A stretch of 64,000 nucleotides of DNA. Source: Microthyrium microscopicum. Its lineage: Eukaryota; Ascomycota; Dothideomycetes; Microthyriales; Microthyriaceae. The stretch spans positions 917,457 through 981,456 of the forward strand of contig MU004236.1 of NCBI GenBank assembly GCA_010405405.1, in the 5' to 3' direction. A program made the translations under genes and the position numbers. The number at the start of each line of letters is the position of its first letter. Within the stretch, counting starts at the first letter, position 1. A model generated the notes under the pieces. That model was not told the origin of the DNA. It did not search any database and saw nothing but the letters and a program-made list of their open reading frames with translations. This document shows, in pieces, positions 1-48,330 of this stretch.

Positions 1-366
1 AACAATACGCCAGTGCGTATCGAGCATTGGAATGTAGCTCAGATGGGCGGCCGCACTGTCGCGCGAGTGATCAACAAGAAGGGTGAACCGGAGAAGTTCA
101 TCCCTATATTCTGGTCTGCTCTGGGCCAGCAATTGAGATACTGCGGATCCACGGTTTCGGGAGGCTTTGATGATGTTGTGATCAAAGGCGCGACTAGTGC
201 TGATAAGCCGAGTTGGGTGGCATACTATACACAGGGCGAGACTGTGGTGGCTGTGGCTTCAATGGGTAAAGATCCGGTTATGGTGCAGTCTGCTGAGTTG
301 ATGAGACGGAGCAAGATGCCGACCAAGAAGGAGTTGGAGGATGGTGCTGATGTGCTGTCGTTGTAA
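1..366 (+). CDS. AIF-like FAD/NAD oxidoreductase, C-terminal fragment
   Basis: The reading frame is open from base 1 and ends at a TAA, so this is the last 121 residues of a gene that starts outside the window. The order VRIEHWNVAQ, GRTVAR, then IPIFWS, LRYCG, GFDDVVIKG, YYTQGETVVAVASMGKDP is the characteristic C-terminal (reductase-C) domain of the apoptosis-inducing-factor / AIFM3-type pyridine nucleotide-disulphide oxidoreductases. The family couples NAD(P)H oxidation through FAD, and many members carry an N-terminal Rieske domain; neither the Rieske nor the FAD/NAD domains can be checked here. A GTG at position 13 is only an internal valine codon. The family call is firm; cellular location and substrate are unknown. 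Confidence 0.85.
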   Translation, partial: NNTPVRIEHWNVAQMGGRTVARVINKKGEPEKFIPIFWSALGQQLRYCGSTVSGGFDDVVIKGATSADKPSWVAYYTQGETVVAVASMGKDPVMVQSAELMRRSKMPTKKELEDGADVLSL

Positions 367-839
367 TCTGTTGTTGTAACTTGATGGGTATTGTGAAGAA
401 AAGCATATAAGGCAACGACAATATACGAATATATCACATATTGAGCATTACAATTATGTTTGTACTTACTACCGTAATATCCCCCATTCGCGTCATGTTC
501 TAGTCTCTTGTACTTGATTCGAGATAAACCCACGCTGATCGACTATGGTAATCACTGTCCAAACTGAGTAGGACTGTTGGCATATGGTGATGTCTAGACC
601 ATAGGGGAGTGTAAGCATGATAAGAGTGTACTATTCAATCCAGATAGAGCTAATCAAGTAGTAGTTACAATTCCAAAACCAACGCCGCTGTTTAATTGCA
701 AAGAACTAGGAAAGACGATACCAAAGCTCCAAGCCCATGCATAAGCCCATAAAGTCGTACGAAACGTCTTCAAAATATATTTTTAATTGCTGGCAGAATG
801 TTAGTCACGATCATAGCACATCAATATCAAGGGGCCAAC
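367..839. other. Intergenic, tail-to-tail
   Basis: Region between the stop codons of the AIF-like gene and the minus-strand disordered-protein gene. AT-rich, consistent with two 3' untranslated regions. A 102-codon antisense frame reaching into it from the AIF-like gene has no recognisable protein features. I see no RNA gene. Confidence 0.6.
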
Positions 840-1526
840 TTACAGCAATCCAAGAGTCAAATCACCATGGATCTTCGCCTTCAACTGAACTTCGATGTCA
901 AGGTTCAACTCCAGTCTCAAGCGCAATTGTTCTTTGCCTTCATCCCCACCACCCTCCTCCTTCTTTCCCCCACCAGTCAACCCACCCAACGCCTGTCCAG
1001 CAGTATTCCCCACCTGATTAACCGCATTGCCTGCCGTATTCTGCACCATATCCGTCGCCCCACTCACCGCCTCTCCACCCGGCAAGCCCTCCGCAATCCC
1101 ATCCAACGGCCCACCGCCACTCTTCTCCTGCGTCTGCGTCTGGTTCCCATTCCGCTGTCTCTGGCGCTGCCTATTGCGTCGTCCGCCGCCCACGGCGCTG
1201 ACTTCAGAGGCTGCAACACTCTCTGTGTCTGACGCATCGACGGCACCGCCTCGGCGGCCACGCCCGCGTGATTGGCGGCGGCGCGACTGGGTGCGTGATT
1301 TTGCGGGCTCGGAGGGCGCGGCGGATTCTTCGGCGGCGTCCTCGTCGGGCTCGGGGGTGGCGTCGGGGGTGGGTTGTTGTTGGGCTTCTGGTTTTTTACC
1401 GCCGAGTTTCTTTGGGGTGCGCTTCTCGGTTTTCTTGGAGGCGGATGCGCCGATGCCGCCTTGGGCTTGGGCTTGGCCTTGTCCTTCGGCTCCGAGACTG
1501 GCTTGGGCTTCTTCTGTGTCGGCCAT
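840..1526 (-). CDS. Disordered Gln/Gly/Arg-rich protein with conserved C-terminal beta-patterned module
   Basis: Single-exon 228-residue protein from an ATG at 1526 to a TAA at 840-842. Residues 1-150 are low complexity: Ala/Gln/Gly repeats, a Lys-rich block, an acidic Pro/Glu segment, then an arginine cluster (RRRQSRGRGRRGG). The middle is Gly/Thr/Asn-rich with heptad-like NTAG repeats. The last 28 residues alternate hydrophobic and charged side chains (around NLDIEV, LKAKIHGDLTL) and end exactly at the stop codon. The same module, 20 of 28 identical, ends the divergent neighbour at 2924. I do not recognise a function. The arginine cluster could bind nucleic acid or membrane and the tail looks like paired beta strands with a Gly-Asp turn; both are inference. 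The high-GC coding strand creates several long open shadows on the other strand, which I discount. Confidence 0.75.
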   Translation of the reverse strand: MADTEEAQASLGAEGQGQAQAQGGIGASASKKTEKRTPKKLGGKKPEAQQQPTPDATPEPDEDAAEESAAPSEPAKSRTQSRRRQSRGRGRRGGAVDASDTESVAASEVSAVGGGRRNRQRQRQRNGNQTQTQEKSGGGPLDGIAEGLPGGEAVSGATDMVQNTAGNAVNQVGNTAGQALGGLTGGGKKEEGGGDEGKEQLRLRLELNLDIEVQLKAKIHGDLTLGLL

Positions 1527-2923
1527 TGTGTTATTTGGATGTGGTTGTGATGAGATGGTTGGTTTGGTGTTATTGTTTGGGTAAAAGGGGAAGAGGCGAT
1601 GTTGTTGGGGATGTATGTAAGATGAAGTGTAGAAGGAAGAGAGTTGAGGTGAGGATTTTGAGTTGTAAGGATGTTAAAAGAAGGCACAAGGTTGGAGGGA
1701 GGCAAGGTTGAAAAGCGATCGAGATGGGAGGTGACGCAACGGGAATCAAGACCAAGAACTAAGCAACTCCAAGGATTCCAGCCTCGAGTAGTATGTACCG
1801 TATGTTGCAAAAGCACATTGCTTGACAGGGGGAATACATGTCCGTACTAGGGCAGATGATACAACGTGGAGCGATTCGAGTTCAAAAGTTGGCAGAGTTC
1901 AAATGGTTTGGCTGAATGGAGAAATTATGATGTCACATTGGAATAAACTCCGATGAAATCTCACCTGTTCCAGCCTCGTTGAACAAGGGGGAAGACATAG
2001 TTTGGGGCTTAAGACAGGGGATGTAGGGGCCATGTGCTTGTGTGAACCTTGGAAGTTGATGCAAAGTGTGGGATATTGAAGGCTGGGACAAGTTGGAACT
2101 TGCAGATGAGCTTGGAGTACCTAAAGAACAAAGAGTGGAAATGATACCTAAGCTAAGGGACATATCAAAGGATATTCCACATCATTGGTACATATGTATG
2201 ATATTCGCGTGGCAGTAGTTAGCACAAGTGGTTCACGTTGTGCCGTTTCTAAAGGTCCAACAGCTGTCGCGCTAAGTCCCCGCAAAATACTTGCACACGT
2301 TGTTACTAACAAGAAAAACGTGGAGAGTATATTTAGCAACCAGTAACAATTCATAGCAACTACTCTTATCTTTACCAATACTACCAATAGAACTTGGCGA
2401 CTGTGCTGGAGCTTTTCGACCTTACTACATAACATCGCCAAAATAATTAATCCGACGAACCTATGGCATGTACCAACCTCGTACTAATCATGTGCTCTGG
2501 TGTGTGTGGTATACGCAACTCGGGGCAAAATAAGGTGGCTCGAGGGCGTCGCCGTTGCATTTTGACGTCAGTGGTCTTGTATCCCTGCCATACTATCACA
2601 CCCCCCTGGTCCGGCCAGCCTTGTTCTGATGTATCAGTCCACCAAGTTATGCTACGCCAGCCGGGCAGTAATTCCGACTCTCAAATCCAAGAGTTGGACA
2701 AGTATCAAACAGAGCTTGAGCACCCTTGAACCAACATTCCTAACCTTCCCATGTGCTACTCCACCACGACCTGACCTGATATCCTTTACTTCCTTCCATA
2801 CATTTTCCTCCTACTATCTCCCACTTACTACTCTATCACTCTTTACACTCTATCATCCCCTCCTCTATCACATCTTATACACCTTGCCATCACATCTCAT
2901 ACAGCTCCTCACCAAACACCACC
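1527..2923. promoter_or_regulatory. Shared divergent upstream region of the two module genes
   Basis: 1.4 kb between the two divergent genes that share a C-terminal module. From about 2730 to 2920 the plus strand is strongly pyrimidine-rich, typical of fungal core promoter and 5' leader, and ends in a good start context (CACCATGG). On the other side the sequence just before 1526 is purine-rich on the plus strand, hence pyrimidine-rich for the minus-strand gene. Short open frames inside have no coding character. Confidence 0.5.
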
Positions 2924-3439
2924 ATGGCCGCTGACCCAGTCCTCTCAGACCAAGAAGTCCAATCTGAAGACGACGAACCCAAGCAATTCCGCACTGTCCA
3001 ACAACAAGAAAAGTACGAAAACTTCCTCAAACAAAAGAAACGCGATGACGGTCTGCAATCCAACCGCTCCCGTTCCGCCTCCCGCCGAGCTCGCCGTAAA
3101 CGCATTCAACAAGCTATGGACGACGGCAAGTACATGAAGACCAACAGCCTAGAAGCTCTCGAAGAAGCCGATGCCAACGGTGAACTGCAAAATATGGGCA
3201 TGTTCGAACGCATTGGACCAGATAGCACCAGTATGGACGGACCCGTGACGGCCGCGAGAGCAATGAGAGGCGAGATTCCAATGCGTGGCACAAATCCGAA
3301 TCAGCCGTACATGCAGGAGAAGCCGAAGAGTGATCTGGCGGACCAGGATGGCCTTAAGTTGACGCTGGAGGCGAATTTGGATATTGAGATTGAACTCAAG
3401 GCGAGCATTCGGGGTGATTTGACGCTATCATTGTTGTAA
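2924..3439 (+). CDS. Small charged disordered protein with the same C-terminal module
   Basis: Single-exon 171-residue protein starting in a strong context (ACCATGG). Residues 1-60 are acidic then Lys/Gln/Arg-rich (EKYENFLKQKK, SRSASRRARRKR), suggesting a helical basic stretch. The middle (about 60-140) is polar and unstructured with no known domain. Residues 144-171 alternate hydrophobic and polar residues (NLDIEIELKA, then IRGDLTLSLL) and match the end of the minus-strand neighbour at 840 in 20 of 28 positions, although the DNA has diverged at many synonymous sites. Outside that module the two proteins do not align by eye. Function not recognised; the shared tail at the extreme C-terminus of both suggests a docking or self-assembly element. 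Confidence 0.75.
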   Translation: MAADPVLSDQEVQSEDDEPKQFRTVQQQEKYENFLKQKKRDDGLQSNRSRSASRRARRKRIQQAMDDGKYMKTNSLEALEEADANGELQNMGMFERIGPDSTSMDGPVTAARAMRGEIPMRGTNPNQPYMQEKPKSDLADQDGLKLTLEANLDIEIELKASIRGDLTLSLL

Positions 3440-4470
3440 GTTTCCATCCCTTCTCCTAGAATCCCTTCCTATCACTGCCCGTTTCTCCTACACGCACATA
3501 AGACATACACATGCACTCAACACATATACACTCTCTACACACACATCTCTCGTGTCATTACGATACAGAGATTCCCCACCCCTTGATGATTTCATCACCT
3601 CATATTTTTCAAAGTCAATAATGTCCGGACCATCTCATCCGTCTGACGCCGAGGAACCAGTGAATAACCCCAACCTTGCAGTGCTTGATCGATGGGAAAG
3701 ATGAGCAGTATGCAGTGGGAATCATTTCGAATGCCGGTTCAATATTCCCATTGCTTTGCTCTTGATTATCTGGTGTTGATTTATGGTCCTTTCTAGCTGC
3801 TAGGATATTCTGCATGTTATGGAGTCTAGGGAATCTTTATGAACTCTCACCAATAGGGGTGTGGTATGTCAATGAAATGATCATCAACAACTCTTTTCAC
3901 CCTCTATATTCGGTCTATCGTTTGAGCGGTGAGAGATTCTCTGACTGATGTGGCTCCAGTTCAACATTATTGCCTGATGATTTGTTGCCCAGTATTGGAG
4001 GACTGCTGTCATAAGTGCAGCGACCTTTGTCTGAGGGCCGTCTGTGATCGGTTGCGTCCTTACGATTTGCCAGACCATTTGGAAGTATGGATTGGTGATA
4101 CTACTCTACACTTTTGAAGCTTGAGTTGAGTCGAAGCAAGCAAATCGACACTCATTAACTGATCGGAGCAATCACTGCAGTTTCATCTTGCAGCCTCAAC
4201 AATTGTAGGAAAATAAATCAGACTGAAGACTTCGAAAACAACAAATTGATTCATCAAAGAGGATGGAAAATCACATTTTCGTTGAGATGAATTTTGGAGA
4301 CTCGCACCTCTGACAAGCGTGCTGCAATGACATGTCACCTTTTCATGCCACCCTCCTGCAACGACCTCGCCACATGCACCTACACGCGACATTGCTAAAG
4401 AATTCATCAACTCAAACCTTGGAGCATATCATCGTAAGCAAATATACTCTAAAAAGAGATCACATCAAGC
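3440..4470. other. Intergenic
   Basis: 3' region of the charged-protein gene followed by the upstream region of the ALKBH6-type gene. Contains CA-rich patches near 3490-3550 and is otherwise unremarkable. Several 60-75 codon frames on both strands lack start context and protein features, and I do not call them. Confidence 0.5.
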
Positions 4471-5930: not shown

Positions 5931-6494
5931 CTACCATCCCCAACCCTTCTGTGCTGGCGCCTGTGGGCTTCCCCAAGCGGGTGGCTTGTTGTTTTGTGGC
6001 TGGTTCCATGTTGGCGGTCTGTTGTTTTGCTGCTGGGCCCAGCCTGGTGCTTGTTGTTGTTGGCTCCAGGCGGGTGCTTGTTGTTGCTGGGCCCAGCCTG
6101 GTGCTGCTTGCTGCTTGGGCGCGCCCCAGCCTTGTGGTTGTGGACCTGGCTGTGGTTGTGCTGGAGCTTGGAGTCCGTGAGGGCCTGAAGAATTCTGTTA
6201 GAATAACGATTCTTGCACGTAGAGAAGGCCAGTGGATTTAGGCCGTGGGAAAGAAAACTTACTGAAGTTGATTCCGTCAACACCGAGATGCCAGTCTGCT
6301 CCAATGGGCTGTTTGCAACCGACTGCGCCAACGGCGATGGAGCATTGTGCGCCTAGACCTGATATGGAGAGTGTCGGGAGTTGGGCTGTGGGACTGGGTT
6401 TTGGTTTTGGGTCAGCGACTGGGGCGGCGGAAACGGCGATGGCTGCCGCAAGGACAGAGATGGTGGAGAAGAGCATCGTGAGTTGTATAAGCAA
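5931..6494 (-). CDS. Small secreted protein with Trp/Gln/Pro repeats
   Basis: Two exons on the minus strand, 6263-6494 and 5931-6184, joined in phase 1 across a 78-bp intron (donor GTAAGT; acceptor AATTCTTCAG). Of the possible acceptors only this one opens the repeat frame, which ends GWGW-stop. 161 residues. Residues 1-24 are a clear signal peptide; translation could instead begin at Met7 (base 6476), giving an even more typical one. A Pro/Lys-rich spacer follows, then a short domain with two cysteines (QCSIAVGAVGC) and HLGVDGINF. The C-terminal half is a tandem array in which Trp recurs every 9 or 11 residues (GWAQQQQAPAW, PPTWNQPQNNKPPAW). No family recognised; likely a cell-wall, matrix or effector-like secreted protein. 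Confidence 0.78.
6030..6110 (-). repeat. In-frame coding minisatellite of the Trp/Gln repeats
   Basis: Imperfect tandem units of about 27-33 bp (core CCAGGCTGGGCCCAGCA on the coding strand) encode the Trp-spaced Gln/Pro repeats. Unit length is always a multiple of three, so copy-number change would keep the frame. Confidence 0.6.
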
Positions 6495-6608
6495 GCTTTT
6501 AATGAGAGACTAGGTTAAACTTGGACGGGTATACACGCTTCTCGTATCGTGAGAGGGAGAGATACTTTGCTTGATGGTTTCTTTTTCGGTCAAGTGATGG
6601 TGTTTGTT

Positions 6609-6616
6609 CTTATATA
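6609..6616 (-). promoter_or_regulatory. TATA box of the secreted-protein gene
   Basis: TATATAAG on the minus strand, about 115 bp upstream of the first ATG at 6494, a usual TATA-to-start spacing for an ascomycete gene with a short leader. TATA-type promoters in fungi tend to drive strongly regulated genes. Confidence 0.45.
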
Positions 6617-7980
6617 TGAGTACTACATGCCAAAAAAGAAATCTTGGGTAATTTCGGAACACTGTTCTATTAAAACCCCCTTCGATAGTGGGCAATAATA
6701 ATTCCCGGACCAAGATACAAACCAATGGTTAATGAGATGTTACAGAGCTTTCATTCAAGGTATTATAGTTGGGATATTGCTATATGGCGGGATCATATCA
6801 CTCTGAGTGTTGAGTCGAGAGATTTCTTGCATTGCTGAATTAAAAATGGGGATCATGCTTTGATTGCCAAGTGAATCTCGATTCTAACTCCAGATGTCGC
6901 CCTTTAATCACTGAAAACCTGGGCGGTTGTAGTATCAAATGGTGATAAGTCCTTCTATTTGCCTCCTCTAGTTTTGGAATCCCGAGTAGCGGTTCTGTGT
7001 AAATATATCAACCCCGATAAGGGCTATTTACAGCTTGATGGTATACCCGTCAATCCCTAAACAGACTGCTAAGTGATAATATGTCCGAAATGGGGCTATT
7101 GAGAACCTCTTGCTTTGCAAAAGGCTCTGTGCGGATATATCATCAGGCTCAAAACAGACATTTTGAGAATACTCTACTTTATTGAAGTGAAGGGTTATTT
7201 TAGGATATACCAAGGTACCAAGGCATCTAGTTCGGCATGAATCTGCCATACAAACTATACGTGGACTACTCTACTAGGCGAAGGCCAAAAACCAACAGAT
7301 CGTGCCTGACAAGGCAAAACTTGCGGCTCTCTGACAGCAAATACCAAGAGGTTTCTTCATCTATCCATCGGGACGTAAACGCCGATATTCAAAATAGGTG
7401 GTCTGAGTGCCGCGGATCGAAATACCATGGACCACTCGGAGCATTTGCATTGATATTGGACAACCGTCGAAAGAGATATCTAGATTCGATTATGTGGTAG
7501 CCGCAAAAAGGGCCGTTCTCAACATAGAATATATTGATGGCGACGATTGACAGTCGAATAAGAATCAGCATGGGCTTATGTACCTGGTCGAATAGTTGTC
7601 GCTTATAGGGCTGTTAGTCAGGGGTCGATTGGACTTGTCTATATCAGGATTATGGATATGGTGTCGATCTAGTAGTTTTTGATTAACCGAACGATTGGAC
7701 CCTAACGTCAAGTCTTGTGCGGCTCAATTCTACCTAGCTTATTCGTACACGATCTACTACATGGATGGACCAAGTGCTCGAATCTGGATCTAAGATGGAC
7801 TGAATTAGGTAGTCCTTGCCTCGATGGTAGAGTCTATAGATAGTTTCAATGTTCAGAACCACGCGATTCTACGAAGAAAGTAATATAGAGAATCCGAATC
7901 CGCGGATTGCTATAAAGATATCTTCAATTGTAGATGGATCTCCCCGGCTTAGCCGATGGTGATATAGTATACGTTATACC

Positions 7981-43015: not shown

Positions 43016-46000
43016 ATGGCATCAGTCGCGATGACTACGCTCAAAATCCCGGGACCTGTGTCCTCGGCGAAACTAAAGACCATTAAAGAAGTTCAATTTG
43101 GTATCTTCTCTCCCGAAGAGATCAAAGGCTTCAGCGTCTGCCATGTTCAGTATCCCGAAACACTGGTATGAACATTTCTCAGCTTTGCGAGAAGTGTGAC
43201 TAACTTTGGATATAGGATGACACTAGAACTCGCCCTCGAGAGAACGGTCTTGGCGATACTCGCATGGGATCTATCGATCGTAACTTTGAATGCGCCTCCT
43301 GCAATGAGCAAATGCAAAACTGTCAAGGGCATTTCGGTCATATCGAACTTGTCGCTCCTGTCTTTCATCCTGGGTTCATCAAGAAGACGAAGCAATTGCT
43401 TGAATGTGTCTGCCACACTTGCGGAAAAATACTTGTTGATGAGACCCTGCCTGCTTACGCAGAGGCTCTCAAGCATCGTCTGCCGAAAACTCGGTTCAAT
43501 GTCATCCACAAACTTTGCGAAAAGAAGACCAGCTGTGAGTCCAGCAAGTCCGATGAAGACCCGGATGCCAATCAGAGTATGAGCGATCTCAAGAAGGCAG
43601 CTGTTGGTCATGGTGGCTGCGGCAACGCGCACCCCAACATTGTAAAAGTACAGCTTGACTTGAAGGCTACATGGAAGCGAAAAAAGAGCGATGTTGAAGA
43701 AGGCGAGGCAAAAGAGGAAACTCGTTTCATCTCACCTCGAGAATGTCAAGAAATCTTCAGTCGCATTACAGATGCAGACCTTCGGACTCTAGGATTCAGC
43801 TTGAATTATGCTCGACCCGAATGGATGATACTGACCGTCCTTCCCGTTCCTCCGCCCCCAGTCCGACCTGGCGTGTCGATGGATGGCAGTTCTGGAAGTT
43901 CTCGGTCCGAAGATGATTTAACCTACAAATTAGGAGACATTATTCGCGCAAATCAGCAGCTTCGGCGTTGTGAACAAGAAGGTTCTCCGCAACACGTTGT
44001 AGACGAATTCTTCAAGCTCTTACAATACCATGTGGCGACATTAATGGACAATCAAATCGCCGGAGTGCCTCAAGCAACACAGAAAAGCGGCCGTGCTTTG
44101 AAATCCATCCGTGCTCGATTAAAGGGTAAAGAAGGGCGACTACGGGGCAATCTCATGGGAAAGCGTGTCAATTTTTCCGCCCGTACTGTAATTACAGGAG
44201 ATCCAAATCTGTCGCTTGATGAGGTTGGTGTACCACGAAGCATCGCTCAAATCTTGACCTTTCCAGAGGTGGTCACTCCTTTCAATATCCAACGCCTATT
44301 GGGATATGTGCGGACTGGTCCATACAAGCATCCTGGTGCTCGATATATCACACGAGAAACCGGTGATCGCCTAGACTTGAAGCACCAAAAGAATTTGGAT
44401 ACCATTTCACTCGGCTGGGGTTGGATTGTCGAACGACACATCATGGATGGAGACTACATCGTATTTAATCGACAACCCTCTCTACACAAGGAATCCATGA
44501 TGGGTCATAGAGTTCGAGTTTTGCCATTCTCCACCTTTCGACTGAACCTTTCTGTCACTAGCCCTTACAACGCGGATTTTGATGGTGATGAGATGAACTT
44601 GCATGTTCCTCAAACTCAAGAAACTCGCGCTGAAATTCAAAACATCTGCATGGTGCCATTGAATATCGTTTCTCCGCAACGTAATGGAGCGCTGATGGGA
44701 ATTGTGCAAGACAGTCTCTGTGGAATCTACAAAATGGCCCGCCGAGATGTCTACTTGACTAAGGAAGAAGTCATGAGCATTCTCATGTGGGTGCCAGAGT
44801 GGGACGGCACGCTCCCTCGGCCTGCATTTATCAAGCCGCGAGCTAGATGGACTGGAAAGCAATTGATCTCTCTACTTTTCCCCCCTCGGCTCAACCTGCA
44901 AGGAGAGGCTAAAAAGCCAAGCCCAATCCACATCGATGACGAAGGATATCTTATCCAACAAGGGGAACTCGTGTACGGATTACCTAATAAGAAAATCGTC
45001 GGTGTTGGCAGCAGTGTGATTCACACAATATATAACCAAGAAGGATGGGAGGCCTGCATGAACTTTTTCAATGGTTGCCAGCGTATTGTCAATTACTGGC
45101 TTCTACACAACGGATTTTCTATTGGTATTGGCGACACTGTACCCGACCCTACGACTATTCAAGCTATCTCGAATGCGATCACATCCAAAAAGGAGGAGGT
45201 TGCTCAGGTCACGAAAGAGGCCACCGCCAACGAGCTGGAGCCTCTACCTGGTATGAGTGTTCGAGATACTTTTGAGAGCAAAGTTCAAAAGGCGTTGAAC
45301 GATGCTCGTGAAAAGGCCGGAGCAGATACAGCCGATAATCTCAAGGATATCAACAACGCTGTCCAGATGTCGCGATCTGGATCCAAAGGCTCCAACATCA
45401 ACATTTCCCAAATGACTGCTCTGGTTGGTCAACAAGCTGTTGAGGGAAAGCGAGTACCTTTTGGCTTTAGTTATCGGACTCTACCTCATTTCACCAAAGA
45501 TGACTACTCTCCGGAATCGCGTGGATTTGTAGAGAACTCATATCTCCGAGGCCTTGTTCCAACCGAGTTCTTTTTTCACGCCATGGCCGGTCGCGAAGGT
45601 TTAATTGATACAGCTGTCAAGACTGCGGAAACTGGTTACATCCAACGTCGACTTGTCAAGGCATTGGAAGACTGCTCTGTCAAGTATGACGGAACCGTTC
45701 GCAACTCCCTTGGCGACATTGTGCAATTTGTCTATGGTGAAGATGGCATGGATGCTCAGCACATTGAGGAACAAACCGCAGACATCATCTACTGCTCTGA
45801 GGCACAGTTTGCTGACATGTATCGCATTGATGTGATGGACCCAGAATTGCCGAGCATCCGACCCGAGATCTTGGAACAGGCGCAGGAAATATCTGGTGAT
45901 CTTGAGGTCCAACGCCATCTTGATGAAGAATGGGAACGCCTTCAAGGAGCTAGACAACTTTTCCGCGACACGTTCTTTGCCTTCTTGAACAAAGGCTCGG

Positions 46001-48330
46001 AAGGAGAAAAGTTTCAACTTCCATTGCACATTGAGCGAATAATCCAGTCGGCACAAACACGGTTTAACATCAAGAGTGGGGGACGAAGCGACCTTAATCC
46101 AAAAGAGGTCATACCTCAAGTTCAAGATATGCTTGAACGTCTGGTTGTCGTTCGAGGAAGTGATCCACTAACCCTGGAAGCCCAACACAACGCTACCCTT
46201 CTCTTCAAGGCCCTATTACAAACGCGATTGGCCTTCAAGCGCCTTGTTGCAACGTATTCTCTCACAAAACTAGCGCTCAATAGTGTTCTCGGGGAGATTG
46301 AAAATAAGTTCCTGAAGGCCCAGGTTAATCCTGGTGAAATGGTAGGCGTTCTTGCAGCTCAATCTATCGGAGAGCCGGCCACTCAGATGACCCTCAACAC
46401 TTTCCATTTTACTGGTATTGCATCCAAGAACGTCACATTAGGTGTGCCTCGTCTAAAGGAAATCCTCAATGCCGCGGATAATCTCAAAACGCCCAGCATG
46501 CTCATATATCTAGATGGAGATGAACAATTCAGTCAAGACGCTGCCAAGAAACTGCGTAGCACTGTCGAGCACACATCGCTCCGATCCGTCACCGAGTCAA
46601 GCGAGATCTGGTACGATCCCGATGTTAAACAAACTGTCATTGAGGCCGATGAAGACATGGTGGAATCCTATTGGGTTGTACCAGACGAAAAGGACGAACA
46701 GACCATCGAGCAACAAGGAAAATGGGTTCTGCGTATCTTGCTTGGTCGACGCAAGCTTCTCGACAAAGGATTGACCGTCAGCGATGTTGCCACCAAGCTC
46801 AAGGAAGAATTTGGCGGAAGCATGGCAATCATTTTCAGCGACAATAACGCGGATGAACAAGTGATCCGCATTCGCCTGATTAGTGAAGATGGCAAGAAAC
46901 AGGAGGACGATGAAGACGACGAGTCTGACAGCATGCTCATCAAAGTCGAAGAGCATCTCATGAGCGAGACGACAATTCGTGGCATACCTGACGTTTCTCG
47001 TGCCTTTATCGAGAAACACAACATTGTGCGTACAGATGCCAGCGGTCAAATTCATGATACCAAGGACGATCCTCTGTGTCAAACTTGGCGCCTAAACACG
47101 AGCGGTACTGCGCTTCGCCAAGTATTCGAAATCGAAGGAGTGGATGTGCGGCGCACATATACGAACAACTTTCTGGAAGTCGTCACCGTTCTGGGTATTG
47201 AGGCAGGCCGGGCTGCAATGGCTACTGAGCTATACCAGGTGCTGTCCTTTGATGGCTCGTATGTCAACGCTCGTCACTTGGCCATCTTGGCGGATGTGAT
47301 GACTTCAAGAGGCAAAGTAATGCCTGTTACGCGTCATGGAATCAATCGCGCGGAAACAGGTGCGATCATGCGCTGCTCATTCGAAGAGACTGTAGAGATC
47401 CTTCTTGACGCTGCTAATCTTGGAGAGCTCGATAATTGTCGTGGCATCTCTGAAAACATTGTGCTCGGCCAGCTTGCTCCTCTTGGCACAGGCGATATGG
47501 AAATCATTGTGGATGAACAGATGATAAGCACAGTTGCTGCTGACAACCAGCAATATCAAGGTCCAGGCGGGGCAGACGGCTCGGCTTTCCAACCTGGAAG
47601 TGCTACTCCTTATGACATTGGATCTCCTCAGTACAATAATAGCACTGGAGGCCCCGATTACGGCTCGTCTTTCTCGCCTATTGCACAAGCTGGCTTAACG
47701 GAAGGAAGCTTCTCGGAGTATGGTCAGATGACAAGCTATGGTGGAACAGGCGCTTTGAGTCCATACCAGCCAACAAGCCCGTATAGCAGCACAAGTCCTG
47801 CTTACAACGTTCGAAGCCCATTCGGAATGGCCAGCCCAGCCTATGGAAGTGCATCACCCGCATATTCTCCATCATCCCCCGGTGGTAGCTTGTTATATGG
47901 AAGCACCTCTCCAGCTAGTCCTGCTTATACTCCAGGCTCACCTGGAGCTAGATCAACATCGCCTAGCTACTCTCCCACATCTCCATCCTTCTCCCCAACT
48001 TCACCTGGTGGAGCACTGGGAAAGACTTCGCCTGGCTACTCTCCCACTTCGCCTGGCCTGAGCCCTAAATCACCAGGCGGACAACAAGTCTCTCGATTCA
48101 GTCCCAAATCGCCATATAGTCCAACATCACCGGCTTACTCGCCTGCGAGTCCCATGTTCAATGCAAGCACGGTTCAGAAATCGCCGACATCACCAGCGTA
48201 TTCGCCCACTAGTCCACATTATAGTCCTACCTCGCCAGCAATGTTGGGCAATTCTCCAACCTCCCCCTCGTACTCGCCTACGAGCCCTCAATACTCACCC
48301 ACAAGCCCGCAGTACAAGGCTCCAGGGTAA
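43016..48330 (+). CDS. RPB1: RNA polymerase II largest subunit
   Basis: Two exons, 43016-43165 and 43216-48330; 1754 residues. Residues 1-60 (KEVQFGIFSPEEIKGFSV, DDTRTRPRENGLGDTRMG) and the zinc-binding CASC...CQGHFGH segment form the clamp. The catalytic NADFDGDEMN lies at 502-511, with Asp504, 506 and 508 binding magnesium. The funnel and trigger-loop region (GVLAAQSIGEPATQMTLNTFH) and the cleft follow. The C-terminal domain begins near residue 1565 and contains roughly two dozen YSPTSPx-like heptads, many degenerate or interrupted by spacers. It is the core of Pol II. A good donor (GTAAGA) overlaps the stop codon, so a short extra terminal exon is possible (see findings). Confidence 0.97.

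What the first reader, a model, noticed from the sequence alone, without database searches (positions are those of the whole stretch)
840..3439. Two divergent neighbours end in the same 28-residue C-terminal module
Seen: both proteins are otherwise dissimilar and disordered, yet their last 28 residues agree at 20 positions (shared LxL, NLDIE, LKA, GDLTL cores), strictly alternating hydrophobic and polar, and both stop immediately after it. The DNA differs at many synonymous sites, so the peptide is under selection and the duplication is old. Inference: a beta-strand pair or beta-arch used for docking or assembly at the free C-terminus. I know of no named domain for it.
Basis: seen in the sequence. 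Interest (0 to 1): 0.7.

Follow-up and report, generated by a model that had tools for sequence, protein, structure and literature searches.

The report
Conserved C-terminal tail on disordered proteins
Four otherwise dissimilar, probably floppy proteins of a fungus end in the same 28-residue tail of alternating water-shunning and water-loving residues, most likely a short docking strand, and it has no name in the libraries searched here.

Summary
P1 (window 840-1526, minus) and P2 (2924-3439, plus) are head-to-head neighbours whose last 28 residues agree at 20 positions; 0 of 200,000 alternation-preserving shuffles reach this. Their bodies match nothing else in the genome. The tail is not confined to this pair: four searches of the genome with four different tail queries return the same four loci, and at 4 of 4 it is the C-terminus. 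Pfam, NCBIfam and PDB sequences hold no match to the isolated tails. P1/P2 tails have dN 0.35, dS 1.90. At the C1 locus the last 16 codons plus stop recur in tandem as a 56-base, intron-like unit; 9 of 10 base differences between the copies are silent, which suggests that both are translated. In P1 and C6 a canonical intron begins inside the stop codon; splicing would add one or two residues. Best reading: a short amphipathic, beta-type docking or self-association tail on disordered carriers, kept among ancient paralogues. Structure prediction did not support beta (low-confidence helix). Partner, structure and spread in other fungi were not testable here.

The parts
840..1526 (-). P1, 228-aa protein (unspliced reading), low-complexity, Gly/Gln/Arg/Glu-rich body plus C-terminal tail
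   Evidence: ORF list; body matches only itself in the genome; no Pfam family above cut-off
843..932 (-). 30-residue P1 tail (the last 28 residues, 843-926, are the module)
790..843 (-). putative 54-nt intron whose 5' splice site (GTAAGT) contains the stop codon TAA; branch-like CTAAC, 3' end CAG; splicing would read on to Leu-Asn-stop at 783-789
   Evidence: sequence and scan; chance of such branch and 3' signals at a random position 752 of 18,252 (4.1%); not tested by RNA
2924..3439 (+). P2, 171-aa protein, charged body (RS-rich stretch) plus C-terminal tail
   Evidence: ORF list; body matches only itself in the genome; no Pfam match
3347..3436 (+). 30-residue P2 tail (the last 28 residues, 3353-3436, are the module)
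3436..3441 (+). GTAAGT across the P2 stop codon, 5'-splice-like, but without a strict branch and 3' site in the usual range
   Evidence: strict pattern false for P2
1527..2923 (.). 1,397-bp divergent intergenic region between the two start codons
   Evidence: coordinates

Best explanation
The last 28 residues of P1 and P2 are a short, autonomous C-terminal interaction element carried by a small family of otherwise disordered proteins that are ancient paralogues (at least four in this genome). SHOWN: the tail is conserved at protein level, strictly alternating, always last in the reading frame at the four loci found, and the only part that the carriers share. INFERRED: it forms an extended amphipathic strand, with residues 3-21 as the strand and the invariant Gly-Asp (residues 23-24) as a turn before a short closing stretch, and it is used for docking: either by adding a strand to the sheet of a common folded partner, or by staggered or antiparallel pairing between tails. 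The charge at each outward slot is of like sign or neutral in nearly all four tails (basic at 4, acidic at 8, 12, 14 and 24), so that in-register parallel stacking of tails, the simple amyloid arrangement, is the worst of the registers scored; a common partner or a staggered pairing fits better. P1 and P2 would be brought to the same place or complex by the same tail.
For: Identity of 20 of 28 with 0 of 200,000 slot-preserving shuffles reaching it, dN 0.35 against dS 1.90. Same four loci from four tail queries, all C-terminal; nine columns invariant in the four (L3, E8, L11, E14, A19, G23, D24, T26, L29). Amphipathic at 180 degrees, not at 100. Bodies unrelated and poor in order-promoting residues. 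At C1 two tandem copies of the tail end differ by 10 bases of 51 with one amino-acid change; 1 of 200,000 random placements of 10 substitutions changes so few codons' meaning. Charge-register scores: in-register parallel -30, best staggered parallel +11, best antiparallel +6.
Against: AlphaFold2 on the four tails gives a helix (residues 6-39 of 40), mean pLDDT 75.5, five models 48.5-75.5, pTM 0.37; the alignment is too shallow to decide, but it does not support beta. No partner is known. The charge scores are a crude count without a structure. No orthologues from another species could be examined, so conservation rests on four paralogues of one genome.
Confidence: 0.45

Rival explanations
1. 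Ordinary divergence of full-length paralogues: P1/P2 arose by an old inverted local duplication and C6/C1 by other duplications; the disordered bodies have diverged beyond recognition and the tail is simply the one constrained part. It says how the pattern arose and does not exclude docking, but it removes the notion of a mobile module.
For: Silent sites near saturation between paralogues, so unconstrained bodies would be unrecognisable; 4 of 4 tails stand at the same end; 5'-splice-like GTRAG(T/A) at the stop of P1, P2, C6 and C1 second copy, 4 of 5 tail stops (sequences printed there), as expected if whole 3' ends were inherited.
Against: No trace of body homology at all, also not between P1 and P2, and predicted 5' gene structures differ: P1 and P2 read without an intron from their ATG, C6 and C1 seem to have a tiny first exon (read by eye).
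Confidence: 0.35
2. Fungal amyloid-signalling motif: neighbouring genes share a short beta-solenoid motif by which one protein templates the other.
For: Adjacent, divergently transcribed genes sharing a short alternating motif is the arrangement described for het-s and nwd2 (PMC3321046, passages), and fungal effector motifs are C-terminal (PMC9815663, passages).
Against: HET-s consensus features (9 scored) are met at most at 3, 4, 3 and 3 of 9 in P1, P2, C6 and C1; the PUASM pattern in 0 of 4; G/N/Q/aromatic content 10-17%. In the known pairs one partner is a STAND protein with the motif at its N-terminus; here both are C-terminal and neither carrier has a Pfam family above cut-off, and no N-terminal copy of the tail was found. 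In-register parallel stacking scores worst on charge.
Confidence: 0.08
3. Localisation, membrane-binding or turnover signal read by a cellular receptor at the free C-terminus, without pairing of tails.
For: Strictly terminal position, amphipathic pattern, stop within zero to two residues whether or not the putative introns of P1 and C6 are spliced.
Against: 28 residues with nine invariant positions is long for a C-terminal degron or a tripeptide signal; spliced ends (Leu-Asn, Leu-Thr-Glu) do not resemble the peroxisomal tripeptide (recalled).
Confidence: 0.12

Closest known systems
HET-s/NWD2 and other fungal NLR-associated amyloid signalling motifs (HRAM, sigma, PP, PUASM)
   Same: Short conserved terminal motif of roughly 20-30 residues, alternating hydrophobic and polar, shared by two adjacent, divergently transcribed genes (passages of PMC3321046, and PMC9815663).
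   Different: Both carriers here bear it at the C-terminus, neither has a STAND/NACHT or pore-forming domain found by Pfam, and the consensus features are not met.
Intrinsically disordered septal-pore proteins of filamentous ascomycetes (SPA, SPP)
   Same: Disordered carriers of unknown fold; PMC10023807 reports disordered regions needed for septal accumulation (passages).
   Different: Passages seen describe no shared C-terminal 28-residue tail, and report antipathy to lysine and glycine, whereas P1 is glycine-rich; no septal location is known for the present proteins. Not tested by sequence.
Intron gain by tandem duplication of an AGGT-containing exon segment (Rogers model)
   Same: At C1 the 56-base unit starts GT after AG and ends AG, with a CTGAT branch-like site; splicing would leave the peptide unchanged (model as described in passages of PMC4974935).
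   Different: The duplicated unit includes the stop codon, and both copies appear to remain under selection as coding ends.

Membership tests
HET-s-type amyloid signalling motif (21-residue consensus) | N at positions 1 and 18, G at 17 and 10, hydrophobic at 3, 6, 14, 16, positive at 13 | tested here: not met
   Best frames meet 3, 4, 3, 3 of 9 in P1, P2, C6, C1 (positions from passages)
PUASM | FxGxGxQxxGxGxF | tested here: not met
   0 of 4 tails (pattern from passages)
sigma motif | rich in G, N/Q and aromatic residues | tested here: not met
   10-17% in the four tails; the passage gives no numeric limit
NLR-associated amyloid signalling pair | partner is a STAND/NLR protein with the motif at its N-terminus, encoded next door | tested here: not met
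   P1 and P2 have no Pfam family above cut-off; tail found at four C-terminal loci only
NLR-associated amyloid signalling pair | fibre formation and prion-like foci | not testable with these tools
   needs peptides and microscopy
Any domain family in Pfam-A or NCBIfam | profile match to the tail | tested here: not met
   0 families for the two isolated window tails in Pfam at E 10; 0 for four tails in NCBIfam. Full-length P1 and the C6 protein gave two weak hits each below cut-off; one of these (DUF4845, E 0.15, residues 23-73 of C6) overlaps the tail start
Spliceosomal intron gained by tandem duplication (C1) | GT-AG ends with duplicated exon sequence and peptide unchanged on splicing | tested here: met
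   56-nt unit, 41 of 51 bases identical between copies, 11 of 30 upstream; GTAGAA, CTGAT, GCAG
Spliceosomal intron gained by tandem duplication (C1) | spliced transcript observed | not testable with these tools
   no RNA data held

The most novel reading that the evidence does not exclude
An undescribed class of C-terminal strand tag that gathers disordered fungal proteins into one assembly by staggered tail-to-tail or tail-to-common-partner beta pairing, so indispensable at the extreme C-terminus that the C1 gene keeps two interchangeable coding copies of it, one of them serving as an intron: whether the transcript is spliced or not, the protein ends in the tail.
Probability: 0.2. Interest if true: 0.65.

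Novelty: new variant of a known kind. Interest (0 to 1): 0.45.

Why it matters
If true, a named profile for this tail would link uncharacterised disordered fungal proteins to one another, give a handle (one 28-residue peptide) to fish for their common partner, and add a non-NLR case to terminal strand motifs shared by neighbouring genes. The C1 locus would be a rare example of an intron made of, and still read as, the coding end it interrupts.

Tried and rejected
Known domain: Pfam, NCBIfam and PDB sequence searches of the tails gave nothing. Relatives elsewhere: viral contigs (72 stretches matched a pattern, none confirmed), genome contigs (234, none confirmed), plasmids (no match); these collections are not fungal, so the absence says little. 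Literature: six peptide strings, 0 papers; three word searches on fungal disordered or C-terminal motifs gave 35 papers (20 listed), 33 (10 listed) and 0, none of whose listed titles and abstract starts describes this tail. Short-pattern scans: one search gave 6 places, 3 of them in the family (two C1 copies, C6) and 3 unrelated on reading, with 3 control hits; that pattern excluded TTG codons and so missed P1 and P2. One search gave 6 places, 5 in the family and 1 unrelated (C3:298613, score -2.5), with 1 control hit. Amyloid-signalling membership rejected. Structure of the tail: uninformative helix. The neighbour family at C6 and C1 (four loci) was to be folded for context; the job was interrupted and a new one not accepted. 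5.8S rRNA for naming the fungus: no match.

Full report
Setting. The window lies in a 36.9 Mb genome of 20 contigs, at C7:917457-981456.

Observation. P1 (840-1526, minus, 228 aa) and P2 (2924-3439, plus, 171 aa) are divergently transcribed, with 1,397 bp between start codons. Their last 28 residues agree at 20 positions; 9 of these have identical and 11 synonymous codons. Over 30 columns, neither 200,000 full shuffles (best 12 identities) nor 200,000 shuffles within odd and even slots (best 17) reach 20. NG86 gives dS 1.90 and dN 0.35 over 30 codons. The bodies match only themselves in the genome at E 0.01.

More carriers. Four protein queries of the genome (P1 tail; C1 tail; P2 tail; my consensus; E up to 10) return the same four loci: P1, P2, C6:1325741-1325830 plus, and C1:2092060-2092149 minus; one search adds a fifth place, a second partial copy beside C1. 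At 4 of 4 loci a stop codon follows at once in the genomic reading frame. The search counts are lower bounds by the tool's own statement. Nine of 30 columns are invariant in the four tails: L3, E8, L11, E14, A19, G23, D24, T26, L29. Reading genes by eye, C6 and C1 each appear to start with a tiny exon followed by an intron; this is not tested by RNA.

Shape. In each tail 13 of 14 odd slots are hydrophobic (the exception is G23) and 1, 1, 1 and 2 of 14 even slots; the hydrophobic moment is 2.55-2.97 at 160-180 degrees and 0.26-0.33 at 100 degrees. This is what a strand would show and not what an amphipathic helix would. AlphaFold2 nevertheless drew a helix from the four-sequence alignment, at mean pLDDT 75.5 with the five models from 48.5 to 75.5; I take it as undecided and not as support. 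Charges at outward slots are alike across the four tails (K/R at 4; E at 8; D/E at 12; E at 14; D at 24). Counting charge complementarity over residues 3-22, in-register parallel pairing scores -30, the worst; staggered parallel by 10 scores +11; the best antiparallel register +6. The count ignores geometry.

The C1 tandem copy. Downstream of the C1 tail lies a second copy of its last 16 codons plus stop, 56 bases further on; 41 of 51 bases agree, against 11 of 30 just upstream. Of the 10 differences 9 are at third positions and one at a first position (Met to Leu, last residue); 16 of 17 codons including the stop keep their meaning. Placing 10 random substitutions on the first copy gives at most one changed codon in 1 of 200,000 trials; dS 1.50, dN 0.03. 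The unit begins GTAGAA after AG, holds CTGAT and ends GCAG before GTC, so it can be read as a 56-nt intron born by duplication of an AGGT-type segment, the Rogers model (passages of PMC4974935). Retained or spliced, the mRNA would encode the same tail but for the last residue. That both are translated is inference. An alternative is that the second copy came from a diverged paralogue now lost or not sampled, in which case the silent differences are older than the arrangement.

Introns in the stop codon. Just at the stop, P1 reads G|TAAGT and is followed by CTAAC and CAG, a 54-nt intron; C6 reads G|TGAGA with CTAAT and CAG at 59 nt (a second 3' end at 64 nt is possible). Spliced ends would be Leu-Leu-Asn and Leu-Leu-Thr-Glu. 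P2 and the second C1 copy have the 5'-like hexamer but no strict branch and 3' site; so 2 of 4. Strict branch plus 3' site within 45-80 nt occurs at 752 of 18,252 sampled window positions (4.1%), and in 4.8% (P1) and 3.6% (C6) of simulated downstream sequences. As a caution, GTRAG(T/A) stands at 7 of 43 stops of long open frames in the window, some of which are frames cut by introns.

Surroundings. The carriers at C6 and C1 each lie about 0.5-0.6 kb from a member of another family without a Pfam match. That family has four loci; the 10 kb round the other two hold no tail (the 15 best scores of the scan include none from them; the lowest shown is 21, tails score 95-104). So the association is 2 of 4 and may be shared duplication. 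Its fold could not be predicted.

What is known. No Pfam, NCBIfam or PDB sequence match to the isolated tails; six peptide strings occur in no held paper. The arrangement recalls het-s/nwd2 (passages of PMC3321046) and other fungal amyloid signalling motifs (passages of PMC9815663), but the consensus tests fail, both tails are C-terminal and no STAND partner is seen. Septal-pore disordered proteins (passages of PMC10023807) were considered only as a loose likeness. From memory, not from any call, similar tails occur in hypothetical proteins of other filamentous ascomycetes; this is a lead, and if right the tail is widespread rather than peculiar to this species.

Verdict. The tail is a conserved C-terminal element without a name in these libraries. 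Its use as a beta-type docking or pairing strand is the best reading (0.45), not shown.

Noticed in passing
L025 5002-5108, minus strand (C1:2092001-2092107): Tandem 56-base repeat of a gene's coding end including its stop codon, intron-like, with 9 of 10 differences silent.
   Followed up: partly
L024 5330-6034 plus; L025 about 6129-6897 plus; L027 4582-5106 plus; L028 4774-5259 minus: Family of four loci without a Pfam match above cut-off, with 31 invariant columns in the aligned part (Pfam was run on the C6 and C1 members only); two members lie beside tail carriers.
   Followed up: partly
window 3317-3406 and 854-943, strands opposite to the genes: The antisense strand of each tail gene also reads as an alternating hydrophobic/polar peptide (the antisense of the P2 tail is the best non-family hit of the scan, score 31.5), a by-product of the codon pattern.
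   Followed up: no
window 1-366, continuing into L026 7500-9323: Left neighbour of P1: flavoprotein reductase with a Reductase_C domain and, by eye, a Rieske-like N-terminal part.
   Followed up: no
window 43264-48330: By eye, the largest subunit of RNA polymerase II with a degenerate YSPTSPx C-terminal repeat region.
   Followed up: no
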